Source: Conexibacter sp. SYSU D00693
GTDB taxonomy: Bacteria > Actinomycetota > Thermoleophilia > Solirubrobacterales > Solirubrobacteraceae
Direction: 5' to 3'
DNA length: 64,000 bases
Assembly: GCF_017084525.1 (NCBI RefSeq)
Contig: NZ_CP070950.1
Coordinates: 4,216,001-4,280,000 of the forward strand
Shown in pieces: positions 12,961 through 53,090 of the stretch. The notes beneath the pieces are model-generated. The model was not told where the DNA came from. It searched no databases and saw only the letters and a program-made list of their open reading frames with translations. Position 1 is the stretch's first letter; each line of letters begins with the position of its first letter. A program made the translations under genes and the position numbers.

Positions 12961-12967
12961 GCCCCTG

Positions 12968-15287: not shown

Positions 15288-15297
15288 GCCGCCGCGC

Positions 15298-18400: not shown

Positions 18401-18419
18401 GAGGACGAAGGTACCGGAC

Positions 18420-36230: not shown

Positions 36231-36279
36231 CGTGACCCTGGGGTTGAGGGCCTCCCAGGACCCGAAGTCCAGGGTCGCG
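36231..36279. repeat. Inverted repeat of the GACCCTGG type
   Basis: CGTGACCCTGG (36231-36241) pairs with CCAGGGTCGCG (36269-36279) with one wobble. The 11-mer CGCGACCCTGG recurs at 59608-59618 in another gap between convergent genes. Confidence 0.55.
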
Positions 36280-36291
36280 TTGCGTGGGGCC

Positions 36292-36319
36292 GTCAACTGC
36301 GAACCGGTCCGCAGTTGAC
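36292..36319. repeat. Near-perfect 28-bp palindrome
   Basis: GTCAACTGCG and CGCAGTTGAC are perfect 10-bp arms around AACCGGTC. It is one of three palindromes in the 385-bp gap 36023-36407, which holds no gene. Confidence 0.65.
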
Positions 36320-36331
36320 GAACCATCGTCG

Positions 36332-36378
36332 GTGAGTGGGGACTTGCGCTCGCATAGCGGGCGCAACTCCCCACTCAC
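36332..36378. repeat. 47-bp palindromic repeat, copy 2
   Basis: Outer arms GTGAGTGGGGA/TCCCCACTCAC and loop CATAG equal those of copy 1 at 16194-16240. Inner arms are CTTGCGCTCG and CGGGCGCAAC. As with copy 1 it lies just before the end of a leftward gene and after the end of a rightward gene. Confidence 0.85.
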
Positions 36379-36407
36379 GCTCGCCTAGCGGCCGCGCCTC
36401 ACCGGCG

Positions 36408-38761: not shown

Positions 38762-39531
38762 GCTCCCGCCCGCGACTTCGACACCGCGCTGAACGCGGCC
38801 TCGAGGCGCTCGGCGACGTCGGGGTGCCAGATGACCTCCCGGTACATGCTCGTCTCGAACGAGAGCGCGCTGATCGGGTCCATCGTGGGGGAGCGGAGCA
38901 TGAGCTCCTTGTTGAAGACGGCGGTCTTGAGCGTGGTCTCGGCGATCTGGCGCGCGACCTCGGTCGCGGCCGCCACGGCCTGGCCCTCGTCGACGAGGCG
39001 GTCGAGCAGGCCGATGCGCAGCGCCTCCTCGGCGTCGATGCGCTGGCCCGTCATCGTCAGGAGCTTGGCCTGGCTGAGGCCGACGAGCTTCCACAGCGGC
39101 GAGAAGTACGGCGTGAGGCCGAAGCGCACCTGCGGGAAGCCCAGGACGGCGCCCCGCGCGCCGATGCGCACGTCGCAGAAGACGGCGATGTCGAGCCCGC
39201 CGCCCAGGGTCGGGCCGGCGACCGCGGCGATCGTCGGCTTGGGGTGGTCGAGCAGCTGTCCGTAGGCCGCGAGGCAGAGGTCGCCGTAGCGGAAGCGGGT
39301 CTCCTCGGTGAAGCCGGACTGCAGCTGGAGGTCGAGCCCCGCGCTGAAGCAGTCGTCGCCGCCCGTGACGACGATCGCGGTGACCTCGTCGTCCTCGCGC
39401 CAGGCGGCCAGGCAGTCGGTGAGCTGCTCGAAGAGCTCCGGGCTCAGCGCGTTGCGGCGGTCGGGCCGGTCGAAGGTGATCGTGCCGACGCCGTCCTGCT
39501 TGGCGGCGTGGATCTCCGTGTAGGCGCTCAC
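38758..39531 (-). CDS. Enoyl-CoA hydratase/isomerase family protein (2)
   Basis: The product has 257 residues with a crotonase fold: FDRPDRRNALSPELF, oxyanion segments CFSAGLDLQL and AGPTLGGGLDIAVFCD, then GFPQVRFGLTPYFSPLW. It is a paralogue of the next gene but clearly different in its catalytic loop (LTPYFSPLW against MNGFYGGLA), so the two probably act on different intermediates. The GTG overlaps the upstream stop by 4 nt. Confidence 0.9.
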   Translation of the reverse strand: MSAYTEIHAAKQDGVGTITFDRPDRRNALSPELFEQLTDCLAAWREDDEVTAIVVTGGDDCFSAGLDLQLQSGFTEETRFRYGDLCLAAYGQLLDHPKPTIAAVAGPTLGGGLDIAVFCDVRIGARGAVLGFPQVRFGLTPYFSPLWKLVGLSQAKLLTMTGQRIDAEEALRIGLLDRLVDEGQAVAAATEVARQIAETTLKTAVFNKELMLRSPTMDPISALSFETSMYREVIWHPDVAERLEAAFSAVSKSRAGA

Positions 39532-40007
39532 GACGCCACCCCGCCCAGCAGCGAGAGGAAGTACGCCCCGCCGACCTTGCCCTCCCGCGGGGGCAGGAGC
39601 TCCATCTGGCGCATCATCTCGACCATGTCGTAGGCGGCCTGGTAGTGGGCGAGGCGGTCGCCGTCGAAGGCCAGGAAGATGTCGCAGCCGTGGCTGTCGA
39701 AGCCCGGGTGGTCGGCGAAGCGCGCCGGCGCGCTGCCCCACTGGCGGAAGAGGAAGATCGCCCGCTCGCCGTCGGGGTCGAAGAAGCGTCCGCGCTCCTC
39801 GAACTGCACGTCGGGCATGGCCTGCCAGATGCGCTCGACGTACTCGCGCACCGCGTCCTTGCCGTGGAGGACCTCCGGCCAGAACGTGCGGTCGTCCCAG
39901 ACGACGTCGTCGCTGAGCAGGTCCAGGACCCGCTCGGTCTCGTGGGAGTTCCACGCGTCGAGCCAGCGCGCGGCGAACGTCCCGAGGAACGCCTGTCTCT
40001 CGTCCAT
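39528..40007 (-). CDS. SnoaL-like (NTF2-fold) protein, first gene of the acyl-CoA operon
   Basis: The product has 159 residues with a SnoaL/ketosteroid-isomerase-like cone fold: RWLDAWNSHETERVLDLLSD, VVWDDRTFWPEVLHG, AIFLFRQWG and FDSHGCDIFLAFDGD. Members are isomerases, cyclases or lyases of hydrophobic substrates, including steroids. The ATG at 40007 is 7 nt after TATGGT on the minus strand (leaderless); an ATG at 40019 would add four residues. It heads the operon that faces the TetR gene. Confidence 0.85.
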   Translation of the reverse strand: MDERQAFLGTFAARWLDAWNSHETERVLDLLSDDVVWDDRTFWPEVLHGKDAVREYVERIWQAMPDVQFEERGRFFDPDGERAIFLFRQWGSAPARFADHPGFDSHGCDIFLAFDGDRLAHYQAAYDMVEMMRQMELLPPREGKVGGAYFLSLLGGVAS

Positions 40008-40014
40008 ACACGCG

Positions 40015-40020
40015 ACCATA
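40015..40020 (-). promoter_or_regulatory. Candidate -10 element of the acyl-CoA operon
   Basis: On the minus strand TATGGT lies 7 nt before the ATG at 40007. Confidence 0.5.
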
Positions 40021-40047
40021 CACGACGTCCGGCCAGCGTGGCCGACT

Positions 40048-40067
40048 ATCTAGACACGTGTCTGGAC
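40048..40067. promoter_or_regulatory. TetR-type operator, site 1
   Basis: AGACACGTGTCT (40052-40063) is a perfect 12-bp palindrome inside a 20-bp one (8 of 10 half-site positions match). It lies between the divergent acyl-CoA operon and TetR gene. The same core is at the mce promoter (51814-51833). Confidence 0.75.
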
Positions 40068-40082
40068 GCCCGCGCGATCCGG

Positions 40083-40088
40083 TAGGGT
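40083..40088 (+). promoter_or_regulatory. Candidate -10 element of the TetR gene
   Basis: TAGGGT lies 6 nt before the ATG at 40095. The matching -35 position falls on the right half of the operator, so binding would block this promoter. Confidence 0.5.
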
Positions 40089-40094
40089 CCCTGC

Positions 40095-40898
40095 ATGGCG
40101 ACGACGCCCTTCGAGCGGCTGGCGGAGGTCTCCGCGAAGGCCGCCAGCAGCCGGCGGCCCAACCGCGACCGGCGCAGCGACGTCGAGGCCAACATCCTCA
40201 ACGCGGCCGAGCGCCTGCTCGACACCGTCCCCCTCCAGGACCTCTACGTCTCGAACATCATCAGCGAGGCCGGGATCTCGCGGGCGACGTTCTACTTCTA
40301 CTTCTCGTCGAAGTTCGCGGTGCTCGGCGCGCTGCTCGCGCGCACCGCGGAGGACATCTTCAACGCGGTCCAGCCGTGGGTGGCCGAGGGCGACGGCGAC
40401 GTGCGCGAGCGCCTGCGCCAGAGCCTCGTGGCCGCCGCGGCCGTGTGGAAGGAGCACGAGGCGGTCACGCGCAGCGCCGCCGAGCACTGGACCACCGAGC
40501 CCGACATCGCCGACCTGTGGGCGACCGTCGTCGACTCCTTCACCGAGCTGTTCATCGAGCTGGTCGAACGCGACCGCGCGGCGGGTGCCGCGCCCGACGG
40601 GCCGGACCCCCGGCCGATCGTCGGCGGGCTCGTGTGGGCCACCGAGCGCCTCTTCTACATCGCCTCCACGGGGCGCGACCCGCGCATCCCCGACCACGAG
40701 GTCGCCGTCGACGTCCTCTTCCGGATGTGGTCCTCGGCGCTGTACGGCGCGGTCGCGCCGGAGCCCCCGGCGACCGCCCAGCCCGTCGCGGACGCCGCGC
40801 CGCCCGCTCCCGCGCCGCCGCGCACCGGCGCCAAGCGCCGCGTGCCGGTCTGGAAGGCCGCCGGCCTCGACGGCGACGGCGACGCCACCCAGGGCTAG
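40095..40898 (+). CDS. TetR-family regulator, probable controller of lipid genes
   Basis: The product has 267 residues. The N-terminal TetR domain has EANILNAAERLLDTVPLQDL and the recognition part ISRATFYFYFSSK. The C-terminal ligand domain recalls the EthR-like group (RSAAEHWTTEPDIADLW). A Pro/Ala-rich tail of about 55 residues is added. Its operator candidate sits in its own promoter region and recurs upstream of mce, so it probably represses itself, the acyl-CoA operon and mce until an acyl-CoA or similar ligand binds. The ligand is unknown. Its stop shares CTAG with the convergent last gene of the mce operon. Confidence 0.9.
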   Translation: MATTPFERLAEVSAKAASSRRPNRDRRSDVEANILNAAERLLDTVPLQDLYVSNIISEAGISRATFYFYFSSKFAVLGALLARTAEDIFNAVQPWVAEGDGDVRERLRQSLVAAAAVWKEHEAVTRSAAEHWTTEPDIADLWATVVDSFTELFIELVERDRAAGAAPDGPDPRPIVGGLVWATERLFYIASTGRDPRIPDHEVAVDVLFRMWSSALYGAVAPEPPATAQPVADAAPPAPAPPRTGAKRRVPVWKAAGLDGDGDATQG

Positions 40899-41242
40899 CC
40901 GACGAGGAGCGTCACCGCGACGCTCGCCGCCACCGCGGCGACGCCGACGGCCACCAGGCCCACCGGCCCGAGGCCGTGGCGGCCCGACGCCTGCGGGACC
41001 CAGGCCGCCGACCGGCGTGGTGCCGCGGCGGTCGCCGCCCGGCGGCGCCGGGGCCCGTCCTCGGCCAGGCGCGGGGCGAGGCCGCGGACCGCCAGGGCGA
41101 GCAGCGGGGTCGCGAGCATCGCCCACAGCCCCGTCAGCGGGACCGCGACGAGCACCGCCACCGCGCCGAAGCCCCGCAGGAGCGCCACGGACACCAGCAC
41201 GGCCGCGACGACCACCGCGAGCGCCGCCACCGCGCAGGCCAC
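40895..41242 (-). CDS. Small membrane protein at the end of the mce operon
   Basis: The product has 115 residues with three hydrophobic segments: two near the start (ACAVAALAVVVAAVLVSVAL; VAVLVAVPLTGLWAMLAT) and one at the end (LVAVGVAAVAASVAVTLLVG), separated by a basic loop (GPRRRRAATAAAPRRS). The GTG at 41242 is the only reasonable start; the frame is open further but without a better one. It lies 34 nt after the preceding gene on the same strand. I recognise no family. Confidence 0.55.
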   Translation of the reverse strand: MACAVAALAVVVAAVLVSVALLRGFGAVAVLVAVPLTGLWAMLATPLLALAVRGLAPRLAEDGPRRRRAATAAAPRRSAAWVPQASGRHGLGPVGLVAVGVAAVAASVAVTLLVG

Positions 41243-41276
41243 GCCCCCGAGGCGGCGCGCGGTGCGCCCGGCCGCG

Positions 41277-42020
41277 CTAGTCGCGCGCGGCACGGTCGGC
41301 CTCGAGCAGCTGCGCGCGATGCGCCCGGGCCGCGGCCAGCACGTGGCGGGCGATCGCCTCCACCTCGCCGGCGTCGAGCTCGGTGGTCGGCGGCGCGCGG
41401 CGCGCGTCGCCGAGCTCCTCGCGCAGGACCTCGACCGCCAGCCGCGCCCCGCCGCGCGCGGCGCGCAGGCGCCCGTGCTCGAGGTCGAGCAGCACGCGCA
41501 GGGCCAGCTCCTCGCCCTCGAGCGGCCCGACGACGCCGCGCAGCGCCCCGGCCACCTCCTGGCTGATGCGGACCTGCTCGGTGCGCTCGGCACCCCGGAT
41601 GCGCCGCGGGGGGCGCGCGGCGGGCGCCGCCTCGCCGAGCACGAGGCCGTCCCGGACCTCCTCGAACGCGGCCGTCCCGAAGCGCACCGAGCGCGCGTCG
41701 GCCGCGGTCACCTCCAGCGCGTAGGGGTCGCCGACGGCACAGCGCGCGGCGCGGATCGCGACGTTGAGGTGCGCCAGCGCGGCGGCCTGGAGCGCCGCCC
41801 GCTCGGCCTCGCCGGCCGCCCCGCCCGCAAGCACGTCGCCGTCGCGCAGCAGGGTCGCGGTCTGCAGCGGCACGGGGGCCGGATCGGGGCCGCGCCGGCG
41901 CCCCAGCCGGGCCGCCGGCGCGTCGACGACGTCGAGCAGCAGCACGTCGGCGTCCCCGGCGGGGTAGGTGCCCGCCGGCACGCCGAGGTGGTGCGTGAAC
42001 TCCAGCCGGCAGAACCTCAC
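41277..42020 (-). CDS. Unrecognised protein coupled to the mce operon
   Basis: The product has 247 residues and is soluble, with no signal peptide. The start, RFCRLEFTHHLGVPAGTYP, suggests a beta-rich beginning. The middle (QAAALAHLNVAIRAARCAVG) is helical, and the last 100 residues are helical and rich in Arg/Ala/Glu (SQEVAGALRGVVGPLEGEEL). No known mce-associated family (Mas, MceG, OmamA) fits by eye. The GTG overlaps the stop of the last Mce protein gene, so it is translated with the operon. Confidence 0.75.
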   Translation of the reverse strand: MRFCRLEFTHHLGVPAGTYPAGDADVLLLDVVDAPAARLGRRRGPDPAPVPLQTATLLRDGDVLAGGAAGEAERAALQAAALAHLNVAIRAARCAVGDPYALEVTAADARSVRFGTAAFEEVRDGLVLGEAAPAARPPRRIRGAERTEQVRISQEVAGALRGVVGPLEGEELALRVLLDLEHGRLRAARGGARLAVEVLREELGDARRAPPTTELDAGEVEAIARHVLAAARAHRAQLLEADRAARD

Positions 42021-43342
42021 CCGGAGGACGGTATCCGCGGGACCTTGCCGTCCCAGGGCCGCGGCGTGCCGATCGTCCCGGGCTCGGGGAACGGGTTGCG
42101 CTGCAGCTTGCGGATGCGCCCGACGCCGGTCACGTCGAGCACCCGGTCGAAGAGCTCGCGGCTCTTCGCGTCGAGCAGTCCCAGGTTCTCCGGGCCGACC
42201 AGCGGGTGGACGCGGATGATCGCGCCGAGCGCGTCGTACTCGTTGTTGGGAGCGCCGACGTTCGCGAAGAAGGAGCCGAACTCGCGCGAGTAGCGGCCCA
42301 GGTGCTGCAGCGCCGGGTTGAGCGTCGCGAGCAGCGGGCCCAGCTCGTCCATGAGCGGCGCCGTGGCCGACGACACGTCGCGCAGGCGGGCCAGCAGCGG
42401 GTCGGCCGCCTCCACCAGGCGCGGGACGCGGTCGAAGAGCCGCCGGGCCTGCCCGGCCGCGGGCTCGAGGTCGCGGACCGTCGGGCGCAGGGCGACCGCC
42501 GCGCGCGTCACCGCGTCGACGCGCCCGGCCGAGCGCCGGGCGAAGCCCCCGAGCTGGGCGGTCGTGGCCTCGGTCTGGCGCAGGAGGCCGGGCAGCGCGC
42601 GGACGGTCTCGGCGATCTGGCCGTCGCGGGCCGCGAGCGCGTCGGCGGCGCCCTTGCCGGCCCGGACCAGCTCGCCGAGCTGCCGGTCACGGTCGGCGAT
42701 CGCCGCCAGCAGCGTGCCCGTGCGGTCGACCACTGCGTGGACGTCGTCGCGCTGGGTGGCCAGGGTGCGGGCGACGACGCCGCCGTCGCGGACCGTCGGC
42801 GCCAGCGCGCCGAGCGCCCGGTTGAGGTCCTCGCCGCGCCCGTCGACCAGGCGCGCGCTGCCGCGCAGCGTGCGCTGCAGGCGCCGGCGCGTCGGCCGGT
42901 CGAGGACCGAGAGGACGTCGTCGAGCTGCACCGCGTCGTCGGACTGGCGCAGGGCGAAGCGGCCGCCGTCGGGCATCGTCCCCCCGGCCTTCGAGCCAGG
43001 CTCGACGCTGAGGTAGTTCTCGCCGAGCAGCGTCTTGGTCCGCACGAGGAAGCGGCTCTCGCGCGGCAGCGGCGCGTGCGCGTCGTCGACCTCGAAGGTG
43101 ATGCGCGCGGTGCCGCCGGGCAGGGGACGCACCTCCTTGACCGAGCCGATGGTCACGCCCGCGGCGCGCACGTTCGACGTCGGGCTCAGCGTCACCGCGG
43201 TCGGGACGTCCACCGAGACGGTGTAGGGCGCCTCGAGCCGGACCTTGCTGCCGGTCTTGCCGAAGAGGAAGAGGAAGATCGCGCCCGTGGCCGCCACGAA
43301 GGCCAGCAGCGCGAGGGCCATGCGCGGCATCGAGGGCGTCAC
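42017..43342 (-). CDS. Mce family protein 6 (MceF position)
   Basis: The product has 441 residues: an N-terminal membrane helix (ALALLAFVAATGAIFLFLFG), an MlaD/MCE domain (about 40-120; SPTSNVRAAGVTIGSVKEV, GENYLSVEPG) and a long helical region (about 150-380) thought to build the lipid channel. The end carries GRIRKLQRNPFPEPGTIG. In mycobacteria six such proteins form a hetero-hexameric tube across the periplasm. The GTG overlaps the previous gene by 4 nt. Confidence 0.9.
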   Translation of the reverse strand: MTPSMPRMALALLAFVAATGAIFLFLFGKTGSKVRLEAPYTVSVDVPTAVTLSPTSNVRAAGVTIGSVKEVRPLPGGTARITFEVDDAHAPLPRESRFLVRTKTLLGENYLSVEPGSKAGGTMPDGGRFALRQSDDAVQLDDVLSVLDRPTRRRLQRTLRGSARLVDGRGEDLNRALGALAPTVRDGGVVARTLATQRDDVHAVVDRTGTLLAAIADRDRQLGELVRAGKGAADALAARDGQIAETVRALPGLLRQTEATTAQLGGFARRSAGRVDAVTRAAVALRPTVRDLEPAAGQARRLFDRVPRLVEAADPLLARLRDVSSATAPLMDELGPLLATLNPALQHLGRYSREFGSFFANVGAPNNEYDALGAIIRVHPLVGPENLGLLDAKSRELFDRVLDVTGVGRIRKLQRNPFPEPGTIGTPRPWDGKVPRIPSSG

Positions 43343-44598
43343 GGCTTGACCTGGTCGTCGCAGTTCGGGGACTTGGTGAGGCCCGTGACGCCGGTCCCGT
43401 TGCCCTTGACGGAGTCGAGGCCCAGCGAGACCGAGCCGCGCGGGTACGAGCTGTAGCCGTCGCGGAACTTGATGACCGACAGCGTCCAGGACATGAAGCG
43501 CGCGAACGGCGTCTCGCACGCCGCGAGCTGGCGCGTGGCGAGGTCGACGTCGGCCACCTGCGGGCGCAGGGCCGAGGTGGCGCGGTCCAGCCGCTCGCCG
43601 GTGCGCGGCAGGACGGAGGACAGGCGGGCGAGCTCCTGCACGGCGGGCCGCAGGCGCTCGGCGGCGGGGCGCAGGTCGCCCGACAGCGACCGGACGCCGT
43701 CCAGCGCGTCGCCGAGCCTGCGCGCGGCCGGGCGCAGCGCGGTGAGCGCCGGCTCGAGGTCGTCCTGCGCCGTGCCCAGCCGCGCGAGCGCGGTGCGCAG
43801 CTCCGCGACGGTCCCGGGGAGCTGGCCGAGCGTGGCCGAGAGCTCGCGGTCGTGGGCGGCGAGCGCGCCGAGCGCCCGGTTGCCGTCGGTCACCAGGCGG
43901 CGCAGGCGGTCGTCGCGGGTGGCCAGCGCGCGCATCAGGTCGCCCGAGGAGGAGACGAGGCGCCTGAGGCGCGCCTTGCGGACCGCGAGCGCGTCGGCCA
44001 CGTCGGTCGCGGCCGTGAGGAACGGCCCGAGCTGGGTGAACCCGCGGCGCAGCGCGGCGCCGCCGTCGTCGGCCGCGGCGCCGAACTGCGTCAGCAGCGA
44101 GCGCAGCCGCGTGCGCGCGTCGGCGTCGAAGCTCTGCAGCACGCGGGACACGTCGACGGGCGTGACCGACTGGGCGGCGGGGACGACGCGGGAGGCGTCC
44201 AGGACGCCGGCGTCGGGCGTGCCGCGCGACATCTCGACGTACATGTCCTGCAGCGGCGTCTTGGGACGCAGCCGGAAGGTCGCGTTGCGGAAGACCGGCG
44301 CATAGCGCTCCTCGATGGCGAGGTCGAGGACCGCGCGACCGCCCTCGAGCTCCGCGGCCTTGACGAGCCCGACCTCGACGCCGGCGACCCGGACGGCCTG
44401 CTGGCCGGCGACCACGCCCTTGGCGTCGTCGAAGGCGACGCGCACCTGCGCGTAGTCGTCCCACGGCCGCTGGAAGGTCTGCTGGGACACGAGCGCCGCC
44501 GTCATGGCGACCGCGCAGACGGCCAGGACGGCGAGCACGGCGAACGGCCCGCGCGCCCGGCGCAGCTCGAGGGCCAGCCGACCACGTGCGCCGGCCAT
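43339..44598 (-). CDS. Mce family protein 5 (MceE position)
   Basis: The product has 419 residues: an N-terminal helix (FAVLAVLAVCAVAMTAAL), an MCE domain (VAGQQAVRVAGVEVGLVKAA; PLQDMYVEMSRG), a helical needle region, and a Cys-containing end (ACETPFARFMSW; SPNCDDQVKP). In mycobacteria the protein at this position is a lipoprotein, but here the LAVC stretch is a poor lipobox, so lipidation is doubtful. ATGA overlap with the gene before. Confidence 0.9.
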   Translation of the reverse strand: MAGARGRLALELRRARGPFAVLAVLAVCAVAMTAALVSQQTFQRPWDDYAQVRVAFDDAKGVVAGQQAVRVAGVEVGLVKAAELEGGRAVLDLAIEERYAPVFRNATFRLRPKTPLQDMYVEMSRGTPDAGVLDASRVVPAAQSVTPVDVSRVLQSFDADARTRLRSLLTQFGAAADDGGAALRRGFTQLGPFLTAATDVADALAVRKARLRRLVSSSGDLMRALATRDDRLRRLVTDGNRALGALAAHDRELSATLGQLPGTVAELRTALARLGTAQDDLEPALTALRPAARRLGDALDGVRSLSGDLRPAAERLRPAVQELARLSSVLPRTGERLDRATSALRPQVADVDLATRQLAACETPFARFMSWTLSVIKFRDGYSSYPRGSVSLGLDSVKGNGTGVTGLTKSPNCDDQVKP

Positions 44599-45971
44599 CA
44601 GCCGCCACCTCCCTGCTGCTCGGACGGGTTGTCGTCGCCGTTGGGGACCGGCGGCTTCTGCCCGAGCAGCTGCGCCGCGAGGACGTTGAGGTTCTCGCAG
44701 GTCAGCTGCTCCTTCGGGTCGGTCAGCAGGACCGTGCAGGGCAGGATGCCGCTGAGCGCCCGGCCGCTGACGCCGCCCTCGAAGCTGATGGCGTGGCCCT
44801 GGCCGTCGAAGATGGAGGTCGAGTCGGCGATCTCGGACGCCAGCGGTCCGATCAGCGTGTACAGCGGCCGCTTCGTGTCGGCCTCGGGCTTCTCGAGGTA
44901 CGGGATCGTGCGGTCGCGCAGGCGCTCGGCGACGGGCTGGAGGTCCTGGACGAGCGGCAGGCCCGCGCGCGTGCTGGCCCGCAGGTTGCGCAGCGCCGGG
45001 ACGAGGTCGCGCACGAGCGGCCGGGCCCGGTCCAGGAGGGGCGTCGTGGCGCGCAGCGCGCCGCGCAGGTCGACGACCGCCGGGCGCACGTCGCGGGCGT
45101 GGGGGCGGACGTCGGCCACGAGCGGGTCGAGCACGTCGAGCAGGCCGTCGAGGCGCGCGAGCTCGCGGCGCGCCGTGCCGAGGCTGCCCGGGGCGAGGCG
45201 CAGCGTCCGGCTGAGGTCGGCGGCGCGCGCGGCGGTGACCCCGAGGGTCGTGCCGGCGCCGTCGACCAGCCCGGCGAGGTCGCGCTCGCTGCGCGAGAGC
45301 TGCGCCGCCACGCGCCGCGTCTGGGCGATCGTCTCGCCGAGGTCGCCGGGACGCTCGCCGCGCAGGCCCGGCAGCCCGCGCTGGACGGCCCGCAGTGCCG
45401 GTGCGAGCGGCCGCGCCGCCCGGCCGACGGCCTCGGGGTCCGCGAACGCGTCGGCGACGCCCCGCAGCGACTGCCCGACGCCGCGGCGCGCCTGGGCGCT
45501 GAACGCGTCGAGGAGCTGGTCGAGCTCGACCTGGTGCATCGTGCGCCGCTCGCTGATGGGGCGGTCGCCCAGCGGCCCCGGCGCGGTGCCGGGGTCCAGC
45601 TCGACGTACATGTTGCGTCCCAGCAGGGTGCGCCACCAGACGATCGCCCGGGCGTCGGCGCGCAGCGCGTCGCGGTCGGCGGGCTCCAGCGCCATCGTCA
45701 CCACGGCGATGCGCCCGCCGGGCTCGCCGCGGACCTCCGTGACCTTGCCGACGTCGATGCCCTTCACGCGCACCGGCTGGCCGGAGCGCACGTTGGAGGC
45801 GTCGGTGAAGCGGGCCTGCACCTCGACCAGGCCACGGTCGCGCAGGAACGGCACGCCGCCCGAGAACGTGATGACCACGACGACGGCGCCCAGCAGCAGC
45901 GCCGCCACGCCGGCCCGGCGGCGGCGGGTGTGCTCGCGCCGGCGGCGGCGGGCGAGGACGTCGGCGCTCAC
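44598..45971 (-). CDS. Mce family protein 4 (MceD position)
   Basis: The product has 457 residues. A basic N-terminus (RRRRREHTRRRRAG) precedes one membrane helix, then an MCE domain (NVRSGQPVRVKGIDVGKVTEV; LLGRNMYVELDPG) and a long helical region. The C-terminal part contains LPCTVLLTDPKEQLTCENLN with two Cys that may pair, and a Gly/Gln-rich tail. Overlaps its neighbours by 4 nt and 1 nt. Confidence 0.9.
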   Translation of the reverse strand: MSADVLARRRRREHTRRRRAGVAALLLGAVVVVITFSGGVPFLRDRGLVEVQARFTDASNVRSGQPVRVKGIDVGKVTEVRGEPGGRIAVVTMALEPADRDALRADARAIVWWRTLLGRNMYVELDPGTAPGPLGDRPISERRTMHQVELDQLLDAFSAQARRGVGQSLRGVADAFADPEAVGRAARPLAPALRAVQRGLPGLRGERPGDLGETIAQTRRVAAQLSRSERDLAGLVDGAGTTLGVTAARAADLSRTLRLAPGSLGTARRELARLDGLLDVLDPLVADVRPHARDVRPAVVDLRGALRATTPLLDRARPLVRDLVPALRNLRASTRAGLPLVQDLQPVAERLRDRTIPYLEKPEADTKRPLYTLIGPLASEIADSTSIFDGQGHAISFEGGVSGRALSGILPCTVLLTDPKEQLTCENLNVLAAQLLGQKPPVPNGDDNPSEQQGGGG

Positions 45972-47248
45972 GGCAGCGCCACCGCGTCCTTCGGCGTCTG
46001 GCACGGCGCGGGATAGGGGTTGCGCGCGGTGCCCGGCAGCGTCGCCTTCGGGTCGACGAAGCCGCTGATGCTGTTGAAGCCAGCCGTCGTGACGGCGAGG
46101 CGCAGGACGTTCTGGCCGTTGGCGCCGTTGGACAGCATGGACGACCAGTTGTCGGTGAGCAGCAGCATGTCGCAGCGCCGCGGGGCGAGCTCGAGGACGA
46201 CCGGACGCAGGGCGGCGGTCGCGGTCGACACGCGGGGCAGCACGTCGCGCGTGGCGCGCAGCAGGCGCAGCGCCGGGTCGGTGGCCGCCCGGCCCAGGCG
46301 CAGGGTGCGCCGCAGGTCCTCGACGTGGCGGTTGGCCGAGCCGATCATCCGGTCGGTGCTGCGCAGCGCGCCGGGCGCGTCGCGCAGGACCGGCTGTGCG
46401 CGCCGGGCGAAGCGCTCGGCGGCCCGCAGCAGCGGGTCGGTCTGGGCCAGGCCGGTGCGGGCGGTGCGCAGGGCGCGCGGCGCCGCGTCGAGGGCCGCCT
46501 GCAGGGCCGCGCGCTGGTCCAGGGCGGCAAGCACGCGGCTGCCGGGGCCCCAGCCCTCGGCCGCGGCGAAGCGCTGGGGCTCGAGGGCGCGGACGACCTG
46601 GGCGCCGGCGGTGAGCAGGCGCGGCACGCTCTGCGGGTCGGCGGCGAGCGGCTGCATCGCGCGCCCGAGGTCCCGGACCATCGCCGGCGCCGGCGCGAGC
46701 GTCGCGTTGAGGTCCTCGCCCCGGCCGGCGGCCGAGGTGCCGAGCTCGCGCAGCAGGCGCTGGGCGCGGCCGCGCGTCGGGCGGTCGAGGGCGGAGAGGA
46801 CGGCGTCCACGGGCTCGGCGGCGCTCGTGCGCTGCGCGGGGATCACCTCGTTCTCGCCGAGCGGCTCCCGGGCGCTGCCGGGGAACAGCTCGACGTAGGG
46901 GGTGCCGACGGCGCTGCGGGGCCGCACGCGCAGCCGGGCGTCGGCCCGCAGCGGCTCGAGGTCGGCCTCGAGCTGCAGCTCCGCGGTCGCGCGGCCGTCC
47001 TCGATGCGCGGGTCGAGGACCTGGCCCACCAGGCGGCCGGCGACGCGCACCTGCGTGTGGGCCGTCAGGCCGGCGGCGTCCTGGAACTGCGCGGTGACCG
47101 TGTGGTACTCGCGGCCGGGCACGGAGTTGGGCGCGTTGAGCCCGGCCCACAGGAAGGCGGCCGCGACGACGAGCGTGCCCAGGCTCAGGACCAGGACGCG
47201 CCTGCGGGAGAGCCCCTGCGGGCCGTGGCTGCGGCGGCGGCGGATCAT
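45968..47248 (-). CDS. Mce family protein 3 (MceC position)
   Basis: The product has 426 residues: an N-terminal membrane helix (VLVLSLGTLVVAAAFLWAGL), an MCE domain (GLTAHTQVRVAGRLVGQVLD; VGTPYVELFPGS), helical needle (about 150-350), and an end with CDMLLLTDNWSSMLSNGANG. The two Cys in the last 70 residues could form a disulfide. ATGA overlap with the gene before and GTGA with the one after. Confidence 0.9.
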   Translation of the reverse strand: MIRRRRSHGPQGLSRRRVLVLSLGTLVVAAAFLWAGLNAPNSVPGREYHTVTAQFQDAAGLTAHTQVRVAGRLVGQVLDPRIEDGRATAELQLEADLEPLRADARLRVRPRSAVGTPYVELFPGSAREPLGENEVIPAQRTSAAEPVDAVLSALDRPTRGRAQRLLRELGTSAAGRGEDLNATLAPAPAMVRDLGRAMQPLAADPQSVPRLLTAGAQVVRALEPQRFAAAEGWGPGSRVLAALDQRAALQAALDAAPRALRTARTGLAQTDPLLRAAERFARRAQPVLRDAPGALRSTDRMIGSANRHVEDLRRTLRLGRAATDPALRLLRATRDVLPRVSTATAALRPVVLELAPRRCDMLLLTDNWSSMLSNGANGQNVLRLAVTTAGFNSISGFVDPKATLPGTARNPYPAPCQTPKDAVALP

Positions 47249-48654
47249 CCGAGCAGGAAGTCCAGGAGCCGGCGGACCTCGGGCAGCACCGGGCCGTCCT
47301 GCGCCCCGCGCTGGACCTGCTCGACGGTCTTGCGGACCTCCTCGGGCAGGCGCTTGACGGCGTCGGGCAGCTGCTTGACCGCCTCGGGCAGCCGCGCGGG
47401 CGCCTCGGGGAGGTCCCGCACCGCGTCGGGCAGCGACGGGCGCGCCGGGCGAGCGGGACGCCTCGCCGTCGTGCGGCGCTTGGTCGGCTGGGGCGTCAGC
47501 TGGGAGATGACGCCGCGCACCACCGTCGGGCTGGCGACGACGCGCAGGCGGAAGTAGTGGCCCAGCGAGTCGCTCTGGTTGATGGCCCGCGTCCAGTTCT
47601 GCATGACGTGCAGGACCCCGGAGAAGACCTTCCCGCGGCCGAGGCTCTCGACCGTCGGCCGCGCGTCCTCGCCGAACCGGGCGACGTCGCCGAGGGTCGA
47701 CGTGAGCCGCCGCACGTCCGGCCGCGCGTCACGGCCCAGGCGTCGCAGGTCGGGCGCGACCTCGCGCGCGGTGTCCAGCGTGCGGCCCGTCGTCCGGGCG
47801 AACGCGGGCAGGCCGCCGAGGACGTCGGTCAGCTCGGGCGCCGCGCGGCGCAGCTGGCGGGCCGCCGGCCCGAGGTCCTGCGCCGTGGCGGAGAGGCGCC
47901 GCAGGGACGAGCGCAGCTGCACCAGCGTGCCGGGCGCCTCGCGCACCGTCGCGGCCAGCTGGGCGCGCCGCGCGGCGGCGGTGCCGAGCAGCCGCTGGAG
48001 CGCGGTGACGAGCGCAGACACGTCGCGGGCCTTGCGCGCCGACGGCGTCACGACGCGCTCGCCGCGCTCGATGAGCTCGCCGAGCGCCGCGTTCTCGCCG
48101 GCCACCTGCCGCAGGACGCCGCGCGTCTCGCGCAGCGTGCCCGGGAGCTGCTCCAGCAGCTCGCCGAGGTCCTGGCCGCGCTGGGCGAGGCCGAGGCCGG
48201 CCTCGTTGACGAGGATGCGCAGCTGCATCCGCGTGGTGGCGTCCAGCGTGTTGAAGACGTCGTCGAGCTGGACCTCGGAGCTCGTGCGCGAGAGCGGGAT
48301 CCAGGAGCCCGACGGCTGGGGCCGGCGGCGGTCGCCCGGCTGGAGGTCGAGGTACTTCTCGCCGAGGAGGTTCGCGGCCCTGGCCGACAGGCGGGCGTCG
48401 GGTCCGATGCGCCCGGCCTCGTCGTCGAGCTCGACCTCGACCCAGGCGACGTCGTCGCGCGAGACGCCGACGTCGGCGACGCGCCCGGCCTCCACGCCGT
48501 CGACGCGCACGACGTAGTCCTTGCCGATGCCCTCCGCGTCGGCGATGCGGGCCTTCACGACGTAGGGGTCGTCGCCGCGGGCGCCGAGGGCCAGGACGCC
48601 CGCGAGGACGGCGACGCCGACGAGCAGCGCCCCGAGGACCGCCGGCGCCCTCAC
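47245..48654 (-). CDS. Mce family protein 2 (MceB position) with a tandem LP-repeat tail
   Basis: The product has 469 residues. After one membrane helix comes an MCE domain (YVVRVDGVEAGRVADVGVS; LLGEKYLDLQPG), then a helical needle region and FSGVLHVMQNWTRAINQSDS. The C-terminal part is unusual: five 7-residue repeats of the form LP[DE]xVxx (residues about 408-442) follow a basic Pro-rich stretch. GTGA overlap with the gene before. Confidence 0.9.
   Translation of the reverse strand: MRAPAVLGALLVGVAVLAGVLALGARGDDPYVVKARIADAEGIGKDYVVRVDGVEAGRVADVGVSRDDVAWVEVELDDEAGRIGPDARLSARAANLLGEKYLDLQPGDRRRPQPSGSWIPLSRTSSEVQLDDVFNTLDATTRMQLRILVNEAGLGLAQRGQDLGELLEQLPGTLRETRGVLRQVAGENAALGELIERGERVVTPSARKARDVSALVTALQRLLGTAAARRAQLAATVREAPGTLVQLRSSLRRLSATAQDLGPAARQLRRAAPELTDVLGGLPAFARTTGRTLDTAREVAPDLRRLGRDARPDVRRLTSTLGDVARFGEDARPTVESLGRGKVFSGVLHVMQNWTRAINQSDSLGHYFRLRVVASPTVVRGVISQLTPQPTKRRTTARRPARPARPSLPDAVRDLPEAPARLPEAVKQLPDAVKRLPEEVRKTVEQVQRGAQDGPVLPEVRRLLDFLLG
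47329..47433 (-). repeat. Five 7-residue LP-x-AV repeats in Mce protein 2
   Basis: The units are LPDAVRD, LPEAPAR, LPEAVKQ, LPDAVKR and LPEEVRK, one after another. They would form a kinked amphipathic rod at the end of the needle protein. Confidence 0.85.
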
Positions 48655-49961
48655 GGCCGCTCCCAGTCGTTCTTGGCGTCGGCCGCGGCCGCGTCCAACC
48701 CGCACTCGGGGAGGTACCGGGGCTGGTCGGACAGCGCGCCCGGCGCCGGGATGCCGTTGTAGGTGAGCCCGGAGAGCTTGTCGGTCAGGTCGCTGCCGAT
48801 CGGGTTCTCCTGGAAGACCGACGCGCCGAACATCAGGCGGGCGCGGACGTAGTGGTCCTCGCTGTCGTAGCCCTGCGTGTAGCCGGCCCAGTTCGTCGCG
48901 AGGCTCGCGAGGTCGGGCGCGAAGGGCGCGATGCACCGCGCGATCGGACGGCCGCGGCGGGCGACCGGCTCGAGCGTCCGGCTCAGCGGGACCAGGCGGC
49001 GCAGCAGCTCGGTCGTGGGCGGCGCGGCGTCCTGGGCGACGTCGGCGAGCTTCGCGCCGTCGCGGGCCACGCGGCGCAGGTCGCCCAGCGCCGGGTTGGT
49101 GACGCGGGCGAGGCTCGGCAGCTCGCGCACCCCCGGGTCGAGGTCGCGCAGCAGGGCCTCGAGCGGGTCGAGGCTGCGGTCGACGCGGCCCAGCGTGCGC
49201 GTCGCCTGGCGGAAGGCGCCCGGGACCTCGTCCAGCGTGCGGCGCGTCGCGTCGGTGTGGTCGGCGAAGACGGCGAAGGTCCTGGCCGCCACCTCGACGA
49301 GGTCGGCGACCTGCTCGCGCCGCTGGGCCAGGACGGTGGTGAGGCGCCGCCCGCTGCTGAGCAGCCCGCTGAGGCTCTCGCGGCTGTCGGCGAGGTCGCG
49401 CAGGACCGCGCCGGTGGGCCGGATCGCGTCGTCCAGCCGGCCCAGGCCGGCGTTGAGGTCGGCGCCGGCCGCCGCGTCCAGCGACCGGCCGGTGCCGTCG
49501 AGCATCCGCCGCAGGTCGCGCCGCTGCGGCGCGCGGAAGGTGTTGAGCAGCTCGTCGAGCTCGACGGGCTCGGAGGAGTCGGCGCGGCCGATGACGCTGC
49601 CGTCGCGCAGGGCCGGCGCGCCGTCGGGGCCGGGCTCGAGCTCGATGCGCCGGTTGCCGTTGCCGGCGGTGCTGCCCCAGCGGATCGCGGCCATGGTCCC
49701 GGCGCGCAGCGGCCAGACCGTGTCGTCGTCGATGCCGAGCTCGACGAGGGCGAGGCCGTCCTCGTAGCGGACGTCGGAGACCTTGCCGACGTCGACGCCC
49801 GCCGCCTGCACGTCCATGCCCGGCGCGAGGTTCACCGCGGCGTCGAAGGCGACGCGGACGTGGTGGTCCTGGGTGCGGGTCCCGACCGCCCACCAGGCGA
49901 CCGCGACCACCGCGACGGCGGCGACGACGGTCCACGGGCGGTCGAGCAGGAGCCGGCGCAC
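48651..49961 (-). CDS. Mce family protein 1 (MceA position)
   Basis: The product has 436 residues: an N-terminal helix (TVVAAVAVVAVAWWAVG), an MCE domain (APGMDVQAAGVDVGKVSDV), helical needle region, and a C-terminal part with CIAPFAPDLASLATNW and FGASVFQENPIGSDL, as often found in MceA-type proteins. The GTG start lies 2 nt after the stop of the second permease gene. It is probably the first subunit to meet the YrbE permease pair. Confidence 0.9.
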   Translation of the reverse strand: MRRLLLDRPWTVVAAVAVVAVAWWAVGTRTQDHHVRVAFDAAVNLAPGMDVQAAGVDVGKVSDVRYEDGLALVELGIDDDTVWPLRAGTMAAIRWGSTAGNGNRRIELEPGPDGAPALRDGSVIGRADSSEPVELDELLNTFRAPQRRDLRRMLDGTGRSLDAAAGADLNAGLGRLDDAIRPTGAVLRDLADSRESLSGLLSSGRRLTTVLAQRREQVADLVEVAARTFAVFADHTDATRRTLDEVPGAFRQATRTLGRVDRSLDPLEALLRDLDPGVRELPSLARVTNPALGDLRRVARDGAKLADVAQDAAPPTTELLRRLVPLSRTLEPVARRGRPIARCIAPFAPDLASLATNWAGYTQGYDSEDHYVRARLMFGASVFQENPIGSDLTDKLSGLTYNGIPAPGALSDQPRYLPECGLDAAAADAKNDWERP

Positions 49962-49963
49962 CG

Positions 49964-50833
49964 TCAGCCGCCCACCGGCGCGTTGGGGGTGAAGCCCCAG
50001 AAGAGCATCGCGAAGAGCGCGCCCAGGACGTGGACGAGCACGAGGTTGACCACCATCGAGCGCGCGGTCGCGGCGCCCACGCCGGCCGGTCCGCCGGTGG
50101 CCCGGTAGCCGTAGAAGAGGCCGACCAGGACGATGGTGAGCGCGAACACCATCGCGATGACGATCGAGCAGATCAGGTCGCGCGGGTTCTGGTACTGCCA
50201 GTGCACCGACGACCAGGCGCCGCTGGAGATCTCGCCGATCTGCACCACGATCGTCAGGTACTCCGCGAGGAACTGGAAGCCGATCCCGATCGCGTAGATG
50301 AAGGGGAAGGCCAGCAGCGCCGCGACGACCCGGGTCGCGATGAGGTAGCGCATCGGGTCGACGCCCATGGTCTTCATGCCGTCGATCTCGTCGTTGATGC
50401 GCATCGACCCGATCTCGGCGACCAGGCCGCACCCGACCTTCGCGGCGAGGATGTAGCCGAACATGAGCGGCGCGGTGACGCGGATCGTCGCCCAGGCCGT
50501 GAAGACGCCGGAGTAGGACTGCGCCCCGTAGCCGCGCAGGATGTAGGCCGCCTCCGTGCCGACGGTGCTGCCGATCACGAACTGCATGCCCCAGATCACG
50601 AGGGCGCTGCCGGTGATGTAGATGCCCGCCTGGCGCAGGACCTCCGCGCTGGAGCGCCATGTCCCGCGCGAGCCCTGGAGCACCGCCAGGACGAAGACGG
50701 CGAACTCCCCCGCGCCGTCCACCGTGCGCCGGACCGGCCCGAGCCAGCCCTCGGCCGCGCGGCCGGCGACCGACGGCTCGCCCTGGGTGAGCGCCGGCAC
50801 ACGGTCGCGCGACGGGATGCGTGCTGCTTCCAC
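49964..50833 (-). CDS. YrbE/MlaE-type permease B of the Mce transporter
   Basis: The product has 289 residues with five to six membrane helices (MlaE permease fold). GYILAAKVGCGLVAEIGSMR and DEIDGMKTMGVDPMRYLIATR contain the EExDA-like ATPase contact loop typical of the family. With permease A it forms the membrane core of the importer. The ATPase (MceG/MlaF) is not in the window, as is usual for actinobacteria. Confidence 0.93.
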   Translation of the reverse strand: MEAARIPSRDRVPALTQGEPSVAGRAAEGWLGPVRRTVDGAGEFAVFVLAVLQGSRGTWRSSAEVLRQAGIYITGSALVIWGMQFVIGSTVGTEAAYILRGYGAQSYSGVFTAWATIRVTAPLMFGYILAAKVGCGLVAEIGSMRINDEIDGMKTMGVDPMRYLIATRVVAALLAFPFIYAIGIGFQFLAEYLTIVVQIGEISSGAWSSVHWQYQNPRDLICSIVIAMVFALTIVLVGLFYGYRATGGPAGVGAATARSMVVNLVLVHVLGALFAMLFWGFTPNAPVGG

Positions 50834-50842
50834 CGCGGGCGC

Positions 50843-51715
50843 CTAGTGGAGGTTGCCGGTCTCGGGGAACGCGCCGAGCAGGAGGGCGGTGAACATGAAG
50901 TTGACCACCCAGATGCCGGCGAAGGCGATGACGACGGCCTGGTTGACCGCGCGCCCCACGCCCTCGGGGCCGCCCCGCACCGTCATGCCCTTGTAGCAGC
51001 AGACGACGGCGATGATGAACCCGAAGAGGCTGCACTTGATCGCGCTGCCCAGGAGGTCGGGGAGGCTGAAGTTCGACGTGAAGGTCGAGACGAAGCCGGC
51101 CGCCGGCTCCTGGAAGACGACGACCGTCGCGAAGAGGGCGCCGAGGATCCCGCTGAGGACCGCGACCATGTTCATCAGGGCGGTGACGACGCCCAGCGCC
51201 AGGAAGCGGGGGACGACCAGCGACCGCACCGCGTCGACGCCCATGACCGCCAGCGCGTCGAGCTCGTCGCGGGCCTTGCGGGCGCCGAGGTCGGCGCAGA
51301 TGGCGGTGCCGGCGACGCCCGCGAGCACCATCGCGTTGACCCACGGCGCGAACTCGCGGACCGACGCGGCGACGAGGAAGGCGCCCGACCGGTCGACCGA
51401 GCCGAAGATGTTCAGCAGGTTGTTGGGCTGGACGCCGGCGTTGCCGAAGCCGAAGGCGAGCGTCGAGATCGTCACGGGGATCAGGCAGCGCACGAGCGTG
51501 AGGTAGGCCTCGCGCAGGAACTCGCCCGTCCACGAGTACGGCGGGGTGACGGCGGTGCGCATCGCGCGCAGGCCGAGGTCGACCATCCCCGCCAGCTCCT
51601 CGAGCACGTGCCACAGGCGGCCCTCCCCGGGGGAGCGCAGCCGGCGCGGCGCCGGGGCGCGCGGCGCGGGCACCGCCACCTCGAACCCACGGGGCACCGT
51701 CGGCTCCGCGCTCAT
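50843..51715 (-). CDS. YrbE/MlaE-type permease A of the Mce transporter
   Basis: The product has 290 residues, a MlaE permease. The coupling loop is ADLGARKARDELDALAVMGV and helices flank it. It opens the operon: the ATG has GGAGGG 8 nt upstream. The promoter (TTGACG, 18 bp, TACGGT on the minus strand) lies 65-94 nt upstream, immediately next to a TetR-type operator. Eight mce genes and two extra genes follow with almost no spacers. Confidence 0.93.
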   Translation of the reverse strand: MSAEPTVPRGFEVAVPAPRAPAPRRLRSPGEGRLWHVLEELAGMVDLGLRAMRTAVTPPYSWTGEFLREAYLTLVRCLIPVTISTLAFGFGNAGVQPNNLLNIFGSVDRSGAFLVAASVREFAPWVNAMVLAGVAGTAICADLGARKARDELDALAVMGVDAVRSLVVPRFLALGVVTALMNMVAVLSGILGALFATVVVFQEPAAGFVSTFTSNFSLPDLLGSAIKCSLFGFIIAVVCCYKGMTVRGGPEGVGRAVNQAVVIAFAGIWVVNFMFTALLLGAFPETGNLH

Positions 51716-51779
51716 GCGCCCAGCCCTCCGTGTCCACCCCGCGGCGTCCGTGCGGTCCTCCCGAGACCCATCGCACGCG

Positions 51780-51809
51780 ACCGTACATAGAATCCGAACA
51801 CGGCGTCAA
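51780..51809 (-). promoter_or_regulatory. Promoter of the mce operon
   Basis: On the minus strand TTGACG (51809-51804) and TACGGT (51785-51780) are 18 bp apart. This is the best two-box promoter seen in the window. Confidence 0.65.
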
Positions 51810-51813
51810 GGAC

Positions 51814-51833
51814 GATCGGACACGTGTCTGATC
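51814..51833. promoter_or_regulatory. TetR-type operator, site 2 (mce promoter)
   Basis: GATCGGACAC and GTGTCTGATC match in 9 of 10 half-site positions. The core GACACGTGTC equals site 1 at 40048-40067. It starts 4 nt upstream of the mce -35 box. Confidence 0.75.
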
Positions 51834-51858
51834 AGCGTGTCTGCACATGGTGGCACCA

Positions 51859-51880
51859 GAATCTAATCGGAGTTAGGTTC
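51859..51880. promoter_or_regulatory. Imperfect palindrome ahead of the SnoaL-like gene
   Basis: GAATCTAATCG and GAGTTAGGTTC share GAAxCTAA half-sites. It overlaps the candidate -10 TAGGTT (51874-51879, 6 nt before the ATG at 51886) and may be the operator for the TetR gene at 52316. Confidence 0.45.
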
Positions 51881-51885
51881 TCGGC

Positions 51886-52353
51886 ATGGCCACCACCGCC
51901 GCTCCCGTCGACCTCGACCGCGTCAGCCGCTGGTACCAGGGCTGGCTCGACGCGTGGAACGCCCACGACCCCGACCGCATCCGGCCGCTGGTCACCGACG
52001 ACTTCCTGCTGACGACGCCGACGTCGGCGGTCAACGGCTGGGAGGTGCGCGGGGTGGAGGAGGCCTGCCGCTACGTGGCGTTCGTCGTCGGCGCCTACCC
52101 CGACCTGGTGTGGGAGCAGACCGGCCCGGCGCTGCTCGCGCCCGACGTGCCGCGAGCGGCCTTCACCTGGCGGGGCACCGGCACGTTCAGCGGCCGGATG
52201 GACCCGCCCGGCATCGAGGGGACCGGCAAGCCGTTCGCCTTCACGGGCGTGGAGGTCTTCGACTTCCGCGACGACCGCGCCTGCGCGCTCGACGTCGCCT
52301 ACGACCTCCAGGGGCTCATGCGCCAGGTGCTGCCGCGCCGTCGGTCGGCCTGA
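51886..52353 (+). CDS. SnoaL-like polyketide-cyclase/isomerase-fold protein
   Basis: The product has 155 residues with an NTF2-like cone: WYQGWLDAWNAHDPDRIRPL, VTDDFLLTTPTSAVNGWEV and FTFxGVEVFDFRDDR-type strands near the end (FAFTGVEVFDFRDDRACALD). It is related to the SnoaL-like gene of the acyl-CoA operon. It faces away from the mce operon and its end overlaps the end of a TetR gene by 38 nt. Confidence 0.83.
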   Translation: MATTAAPVDLDRVSRWYQGWLDAWNAHDPDRIRPLVTDDFLLTTPTSAVNGWEVRGVEEACRYVAFVVGAYPDLVWEQTGPALLAPDVPRAAFTWRGTGTFSGRMDPPGIEGTGKPFAFTGVEVFDFRDDRACALDVAYDLQGLMRQVLPRRRSA

Positions 52354-52912
52354 GGCCCACGAGCGCCAGGAGCGCGTCCGCGGTGGCCTGCGGCTCGTGC
52401 GGCCACCGCGGGTGGGCGCTGGCGTTGAGCGCGCCCCACAGCAGGCCCACGAGCAGCGGGGCGGCCGGGTCGCGCGGCAGGTGGCCCGCCCGCTGCGCCT
52501 CGGCGACGAGGCCCGCCCACAGCTCGGCGTAGGGGCGCAGCCGCTCGGCGTGTCGGCGGCGCACCTCGGGGGGGACCTCGGCCACGAGGTCCAGGACCGC
52601 GGCCGCGTAGGCCCGCAGGTCGCGCAACGCGTCCAGGTGGGCGCGGACCGCGGCGTCGAGGCGGGCGGCCGGCCCCGCGTCGGCGGTCGCGTCGACCGCC
52701 GCGCGCACGCGCTCGAGCGAGCGCTCCAGGGCCTCGGCGAGGACCTCCTCCACGAGCGCGTCCTTCGCGGCGAAGTGGAAGTACAGGCTGCCGGCCTGCA
52801 TGCCCGCGGCCCCGGCGACGTCGGCGAGGCTCGTCGCGGCGTACCCCCGCTCGGCGAAGGCCTCGGCGGCCGCGTCGAGGATCCGCCGGCGGGTCCGCGC
52901 GCCCTTGGCCAT
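52316..52912 (-). CDS. TetR-family regulator near the mce promoter
   Basis: The product has 198 residues. The N-terminal domain ([20 protein letters not shown], then [20 protein letters not shown]) is typical TetR, and the C-terminal domain has [20 protein letters not shown], reminiscent of the KstR2-like group. The ATG at 52912 is 8 nt after TAGGGT on the minus strand. It converges on the SnoaL-like gene with 38 nt overlap, so transcription of one may affect the other. Confidence 0.9.
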
Positions 52913-52920
52913 GGGCGCGG

Positions 52921-52926
52921 ACCCTA
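52921..52926 (-). promoter_or_regulatory. Candidate -10 element of the second TetR gene
   Basis: On the minus strand TAGGGT lies 8 nt before the ATG at 52912. Confidence 0.5.
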
Positions 52927-53090
52927 TCCCCGTGCCCCAGGTGCGCCACGGCGGCGCCGTGGAGAGTGGATCTGCGCCAGGTCCAGCGGTTCGTCGGTCA
53001 GGAGGCGCCGTTCATCGACGGCGACGTCAACCGCGCGGGGACGGTGACCGACCGGTCCGACCACCACCCCCGAGAACCCGGGAAGGACCG

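What the first reader, a model, noticed from the sequence alone, without database searches (positions are those of the whole stretch)
40048..51833. One palindromic operator shared by the acyl-CoA/TetR region and the mce operon
AGACACGTGTCT sits between the divergent acyl-CoA operon and the TetR gene (40052-40063), and GGACACGTGTCT sits next to the mce -35 box (51818-51829). Aligned over 10 bp, the four half-sites read ATCTAGACAC, GTCCAGACAC, GATCGGACAC and GATCAGACAC, close to a GWYCRGACAC consensus. A TetR regulator controlling both lipid import and acyl-CoA breakdown would resemble the KstR/mce4 logic of mycobacteria, but with a different operator.
Basis: partly seen in the sequence, partly recalled or inferred. 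Interest (0 to 1): 0.75.

Follow-up and report, generated by a model that had tools for sequence, protein, structure and literature searches.

The report
Shared EthR-type operator for lipid island
Two copies of one DNA palindrome, found nowhere else in this actinobacterial genome, sit at the two promoter regions of a roughly 16-kb inserted gene block for lipid import and acyl-CoA metabolism, and are most likely the switch used by the block's own EthR-like regulator.

Summary
The core GACACGTGTC occurs exactly twice in the 4.43-Mb genome, both times here. Each copy lies in a divergent promoter region: SnoaL-ECH-ECH-FadD operon | TetR, and mce operon | second SnoaL gene. Every transcription unit of the 36.4-52.35 kb locus therefore starts at one copy.

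The TetR (40095-40898) is EthR-like. Inward RACAC-N1-GTGTY dyads lie upstream of 31 of 78 EthR-family homologues (about 0.1 expected), so the GACAC/GTGTC half-site is the family's own. This site has zero spacer instead of one base; one independent zero-spacer case was found upstream of another EthR homologue in the same bacterial family.

In four relatives the locus is absent from this place: PspAA and PspAB lie 2-5 kb apart. The block looks like a self-contained insert carrying its own regulator and operators. A paralogous SnoaL/EthR/mce arrangement exists elsewhere in the genome.

Best reading: an EthR-type autoregulator controlling lipid import plus acyl-CoA genes, working like KstR/mce4 or Mce3R/mce3 but belonging to neither. 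Binding, direction of control and ligand are untested.

The parts
40052..40063 (.). Operator copy 1, AGACACGTGTCT (palindrome extends over 40048-40067), between the acyl-CoA operon and the TetR gene; centre 37 bp before the TetR ATG and 50 bp before the SnoaL_A ATG
51818..51829 (.). Operator copy 2, GGACACGTGTCT (20-bp palindrome GATCGGACACGTGTCTGATC, 51814-51833), between the mce operon and SnoaL_B
51836..51843 (-). Extra half-site CAGACACG, 13 bp from the same 8-mer in operator copy 2; pairs of sites 13 bp apart also occur upstream of clade relatives
40095..40898 (+). EthR-like TetR-family regulator (267 aa), the proposed binder
   Evidence: Pfam EthR_C 1.2e-18 and TetR_N 1.9e-9; Mtb EthR E 5e-26
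39528..40007 (-). SnoaL_A, SnoaL/ketosteroid-isomerase-like, first gene of the acyl-CoA operon
   Evidence: 34% identical to SnoaL_B
38758..39531 (-). ECH2, enoyl-CoA hydratase/isomerase (crotonase) family
   Evidence: Pfam ECH_1 2.5e-45
37955..38752 (-). ECH1, enoyl-CoA hydratase/isomerase (crotonase) family
   Evidence: Pfam ECH_1 1.5e-46
36408..37958 (-). FadD-like AMP-binding acyl-CoA synthetase
   Evidence: Pfam AMP-binding 7.3e-66
50843..51715 (-). YrbE1/MlaE permease, first gene of the mce operon
   Evidence: Pfam MlaE 3.6e-54
49964..50800 (-). YrbE2/MlaE permease
   Evidence: Pfam MlaE 6.8e-52
42017..49961 (-). Six MlaD/Mce-domain proteins (48651-49961, 47245-48654, 45968-47248, 44598-45971, 43339-44598, 42017-43330)
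   Evidence: Pfam MlaD in each
41277..42020 (-). Protein without a Pfam hit after the last Mce gene; homologues lie near three other mce operons
51886..52353 (+). SnoaL_B, divergent from the mce operon at operator copy 2
   Evidence: Pfam SnoaL_2 2.2e-15
36050..54290 (.). Approximate block missing between PspAA and PspAB in relatives (proposed insert)

Best explanation
The two palindromes are operators of the EthR-like TetR regulator at 40095-40898. A dimer binds the inward half-sites AGACAC|GTGTCT. At copy 1 it governs its own gene and the divergent SnoaL-crotonase-crotonase-acyl-CoA-synthetase operon. At copy 2 it governs the mce lipid-import operon and the divergent SnoaL_B gene. The most likely mode is repression relieved by a lipid or acyl-CoA ligand derived from what the Mce transporter takes up. 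The whole set, with regulator and operators, is a self-contained block inserted between the pspAA and pspAB genes. Shown here: site identity and genome-wide confinement, family-wide association of the half-site with EthR-type genes, locus layout, and absence from the same place in relatives. Inferred: binding, autoregulation, repression, and ligand.
For: The core is present twice in the genome, both here, and the 20-bp consensus with up to 3 mismatches gives only these two sites. The TetR is an EthR-family member. Upstream of 78 EthR-family homologues the inward dyad RACAC-N1-GTGTY occurs in 31, against about 0.1 in shuffles. In the same bacterial family many EthR homologues carry GACAC-N1-GTGTC, and 6 of the 13 exact TTGACACNGTGTCAA sites in 61 genomes lie next to an EthR homologue. 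An independent zero-spacer dyad, GGACACGTGTTC, lies upstream of an EthR homologue in G147, one of only two RACACGTGTY sites in that genome. The regulator's clade (support 99/87) includes an own-genome paralogue with the same SnoaL/EthR/mce layout and mycobacterial double-EthR proteins beside yrbE genes. Clade relatives carry paired sites 13 bp apart, as does the mce promoter here. The other TetR gene beside the locus (52316-52912) has no such palindrome at its own start. The locus is absent between PspAA and PspAB in four relatives.
Against: The family norm is a one-base spacer; none of the 78 upstream regions has the zero-spacer form, so the half-sites here are one base closer than usual. The nearest relative from another species (L056, 43%) has a palindrome with the same CACGTG core but other flanks. 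The own-genome paralogue's promoter has no clear dyad. GGACACGTGTCC also lies between a non-EthR TetR gene and a divergent gene in G073, so the palindrome is not exclusive to EthR-type proteins. The operator centre is about -50 from the start inferred by eye for the mce and acyl-CoA promoters, which would also suit an activator. No binding data exist.
Confidence: 0.75

Rival explanations
1. Both sites belong to one regulon, but the binder is a different regulator, such as the TetR at 52316-52912 beside the mce promoter or the second EthR-like protein at 1.706 Mb.
For: TetR at 52316-52912 is the other TetR-family gene found beside the locus. The 1.706-Mb EthR has the related GACAC-N1-GTGTC dyad at its own promoter, and similar dyads lie at other promoters of the genome, one of them before another mce operon. 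A non-EthR TetR elsewhere neighbours GGACACGTGTCC.
Against: TetR-family genes usually carry their site in their own promoter; 52316-52912 has no such palindrome there. The 1.706-Mb protein's apparent sites have a one-base spacer, and the zero-spacer form is confined to this locus.
Confidence: 0.14
2. The regulator binds both sites but works as an activator, or as a dual regulator, instead of a plain repressor.
For: The operator lies just upstream of the presumed -35 box of the mce promoter and about 50 bp before the SnoaL_A start, while it overlaps the presumed TetR -35 (by eye). A mycobacterial TetR, Ms4022, activates from sites that include AATAAGCACAGTGTCGAAA, mostly outside the -35 region (PMC4895335).
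Against: Mtb EthR, KstR and Mce3R are repressors; transcription starts are not mapped here.
Confidence: 0.25
3. Only one copy is a working operator and the other is a chance match.
For: About 8 matches per genome would be expected from base composition; copy 1 departs from the extended consensus at two positions.
Against: Only two matches exist in the genome, and both are in the two divergent promoter regions of one locus.
Confidence: 0.05

Closest known systems
EthR / ethA (Mycobacterium tuberculosis)
   Same: Pfam EthR_C domain, near-identical recognition-helix stretch (AGISRATFYFYFSSK against AGISRPTFYFYFPSK), RACAC-type half-sites, divergent and probably autoregulated
   Different: No ethA-like monooxygenase was found next to it; targets are mce and acyl-CoA genes; half-sites abut without a spacer; it falls in a separate clade from the SRPTFYFYF group of homologues
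KstR regulon with mce4
   Same: One TetR-family protein controlling an mce importer and acyl-CoA/lipid genes through a short palindrome in divergent promoters
   Different: KstR operator TAGAAC-N2-GTTCTA (PMC1995591) is absent from the window; the regulator is not KstR-like; local set of about 14 genes instead of 74-83
Mce3R with mce3
   Same: TetR-family autoregulator controlling an mce operon plus lipid-metabolism genes
   Different: Mce3R is a double-TFR protein on 25-bp non-palindromic sites (PMC11667970); this is a single-domain protein with a palindromic site

Membership tests
EthR family (TetR superfamily) | TetR_N plus EthR_C domains above Pfam cut-offs | tested here: met
   EthR_C 67.9 bits (cut-off 27) and TetR_N 37.6 bits (cut-off 24)
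EthR family (TetR superfamily) | Inward RACAC/GTGTY dyad upstream of its own gene | tested here: met
   AGACACGTGTCT ends about 32 bp before the ATG; 31 of 78 homologues have the N1 form
EthR family (TetR superfamily) | One-base spacer between half-sites | tested here: not met
   Spacer is zero here; one independent zero-spacer case in G147
EthR proper | Divergent ethA-type Baeyer-Villiger monooxygenase | tested here: not met
   The divergent gene is SnoaL-like
KstR regulon | Operator TnnAACnnGTTnnA | tested here: not met
   0 matches in the window
KstR regulon | KstR equivalog score (NF033703, cut-off 280 bits) | tested here: not met
   40095 TetR not listed; 52316 TetR scores 27 bits
Mce3R | Two TFR units in one polypeptide | tested here: not met
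   267 aa, one TetR_N and one EthR_C match
Mce3R | Non-palindromic 25-bp operator | tested here: not met
   Site is a near-perfect palindrome
Mce3R | Represses an mce operon and lipid genes | not testable with these tools
   Needs expression data

The most novel reading that the evidence does not exclude
This genome holds about ten mce operons, and some of their regulons are kept apart by paralogous EthR-type repressors reading the same half-site at different spacings: zero spacer for this island, one base for the EthR at 1.706 Mb and an mce operon at 3.298 Mb. The island is a portable lipid-uptake cassette that brings its own insulated switch.
Probability: 0.2. Interest if true: 0.65.

Novelty: new variant of a known kind. 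Interest (0 to 1): 0.45.

Why it matters
The mce regulators cited here (KstR, Mce3R, Mce1R) come from mycobacteria, and a library search for mce together with Thermoleophilia found only one paper, on another subject. This gives a compact, testable regulon outside them. It links EthR-type proteins, whose physiological role in M. tuberculosis is described as unknown (PMC4482099), to lipid import. It also supplies a family-wide operator rule (RACAC-N0/1-GTGTY) that could be used to predict targets of EthR-like regulators.

Tried and rejected
2) Direct search for the exact palindrome at the EthR-homologue loci: none besides the window's own; only the relaxed half-site/dyad search was informative. 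3) A general mce-promoter motif: rejected, 0 of 29 relatives' YrbE1 upstream regions have an inward dyad within 500 bp, with the caveat that the first gene of the operon may lie further upstream, as at 3.298 Mb. 4) KstR operator: absent. 5) Identifying the mycobacterial double-EthR proteins (L068, L116) as Mce3R: not supported, no Mce3R chain among the listed PDB hits. 6) Own-genome paralogue (1.323 Mb) sharing an operator with its own mce promoter: suggestive GTCCGGACA words only, not pursued. 7) Eight one-mismatch sites in the genome: five lie inside genes and three near gene ends or starts; no clear further regulon member. 8) First orientation check of the own mce upstream regions was wrong and was redone. 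9) A base-composition difference for the insert: none seen.

Full report
Observation. The core GACACGTGTC occurs exactly twice in the 4,429,419-bp genome, both inside this window. The extended consensus GWYCRGACACGTGTCYGRWC, allowing three mismatches, also finds only these two places: the mce copy with no mismatch and the TetR copy with two. A first-order Markov model predicts about eight core matches per genome and about 0.0005 in the two intergenic spans. In 145 other genomes of the family RGACACGTGTCY occurs 38 times.

Anatomy. Copy 1 lies between SnoaL_A (39528-40007, -), first gene of an operon with two crotonases and a FadD-like acyl-CoA synthetase (36408-39531), and the TetR gene (40095-40898, +). 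Copy 2 lies between YrbE1 (50843-51715, -), first gene of an mce operon with two MlaE permeases and six MlaD-type proteins (42017-51715), and SnoaL_B (51886-52353, +). SnoaL_A and SnoaL_B are 34% identical. All four transcription units of the locus thus begin at one of two operator copies. The mce copy has a further half-site 13 bp away: CAGACACG recurs at that distance. Promoter hexamers were read by eye; the consensus scans found nothing. By that reading the operator overlaps the TetR -35 and lies just upstream of the -35 of the mce promoter.

The regulator. The TetR carries TetR_N and EthR_C domains and matches M. tuberculosis EthR at E about 5e-26 over residues 4-218. A scan of GTDB genomes gave 80 homologous loci. 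In 260 bp upstream of 78 of these, the inward dyad RACAC-one base-GTGTY occurs in 31, against 0.08 in shuffled sequence; no other spacing shows an inward dyad at that level. In the window's own bacterial family, EthR homologues carry GACAC-N-GTGTC, often as TTGACACNGTGTCAA. Six of the thirteen exact TTGACACNGTGTCAA sites in 61 genomes lie beside an EthR homologue. So the GACAC/GTGTC half-site belongs to this protein family. Experimental support from the literature is indirect: a mycobacterial TetR protein, Ms4022, footprints on AATAAGCACAGTGTCGAAA (PMC4895335); I did not test whether Ms4022 is EthR-like. The window's site differs from the norm in having no spacer base. One independent zero-spacer dyad, TTGGACACGTGTTCAA, lies upstream of an EthR homologue in G147, and RACACGTGTY occurs only twice in that whole genome.

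Relatives of the regulator. A tree of 113 homologous segments places the window TetR in a clade of 19 rows (support 99/87) with its own-genome paralogue at 1.323 Mb, Solirubrobacterales proteins L056 and L065, a group of mycobacterial proteins, and both halves of double-EthR proteins. The tool warns that the sister relation to the paralogue joins two long branches. Several members lie near mce genes: the paralogue (SnoaL on one side, convergent mce operon on the other, the same layout as here), the Mycolicibacterium double proteins L068 and L116 (about 1.1 kb from yrbE), and L061. In most mycobacterial members the upstream sites come as two dyads 13 bp apart, the same distance as the two half-sites of the mce promoter here; L065 has GACCAGACACGATGACCGGACACG, also 13 bp.

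The locus as an insert. In G001, G002 and G006 (same genus) and G017 (same family) the flanking genes are collinear with the window, but PspAA and PspAB are 2.2-5.2 kb apart and none of the acyl-CoA, EthR or mce genes lies between them. In the window PspAA ends at 36022 and PspAB begins at 55013. No close orthologue of the TetR was found in the genus (best hits 30-37%). The simplest reading is that a self-contained block with its own regulator and operators was gained here. Loss in the others is less likely, but only four were examined in depth. Base composition does not differ.

Other EthR-type switches in the genome. The genome has twenty MlaE permease genes, that is, about ten mce operons. 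RACACNGTGTY occurs eleven times (control one). Most sites lie at gene starts: the EthR homologue at 1.706 Mb, genes that look from their first residues like a P450, a thiolase/CoA-transferase pair and a GMC-type oxidoreductase (read by eye, not scanned), and about 100 bp before the first gene of the mce operon at 3.298 Mb, whose YrbE1 is 63% identical to the one here. This suggests, without proving it, that EthR-type proteins with differing dyad spacing serve different mce operons.

Mechanism and known systems. I take the TetR to be a dimeric autoregulator, most likely a repressor released by a lipid or acyl-CoA ligand, binding both sites. The logic resembles KstR/mce4 and Mce3R/mce3, but the KstR operator is absent (motif from PMC1995591), and Mce3R is a double-domain protein on non-palindromic sites (PMC11667970). 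It is an EthR-family member with a variant operator and different target genes. The main uncertainties are which protein binds (another TetR could read the same palindrome), the one-base difference in spacing, and repression against activation.

Noticed in passing
window 34956-36022 and 55013-56442: PspA-PspAA and PspAB-M48 peptidase genes flank the lipid locus on either side; in four relatives they are 2-5 kb apart, so the lipid block looks like an insert within a psp region.
   Followed up: partly
own genome G000, e.g. 1.29, 1.33, 1.34, 1.78, 2.19, 2.27, 2.64, 3.30, 4.11 and 4.27 Mb: Twenty MlaE/YrbE permease genes, about ten mce operons, in a 4.43-Mb genome; two relatives have 14-15 permease hits.
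   Followed up: no
L165 (G000:C1:1312000-1331000), 10570-19001, continued in L232: Paralogous SnoaL(-)/EthR(+)/mce(-) locus with 46%-identical EthR; no clear zero- or one-spacer dyad before EthR, but GTCCGGACA words at both its promoters.
   Followed up: partly
L238 12475 (G000:C1:3296474): AACACCGTGTC dyad about 100 bp before the first gene (then an ATPase, then YrbE1) of another mce operon, possibly read by the EthR homologue at 1.706 Mb.
   Followed up: partly
L065 3303-4506 and L256; L264: Two adjacent EthR-type genes in Solirubrobacterales, matching the two halves of the fused double-EthR protein of Mycolicibacterium (L116, 438 aa) that lies near yrbE genes.
   Followed up: partly
L137 1501 (G073): GGACACGTGTCC between a non-EthR TetR-like gene and a divergent short-chain dehydrogenase-like gene.
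   Followed up: no
window 41277-42020: 247-aa protein without a Pfam hit at the end of the mce operon; homologues near mce operons in G034, G024 and at 3.31 Mb of the same genome, perhaps an unnamed mce accessory protein.
   Followed up: no
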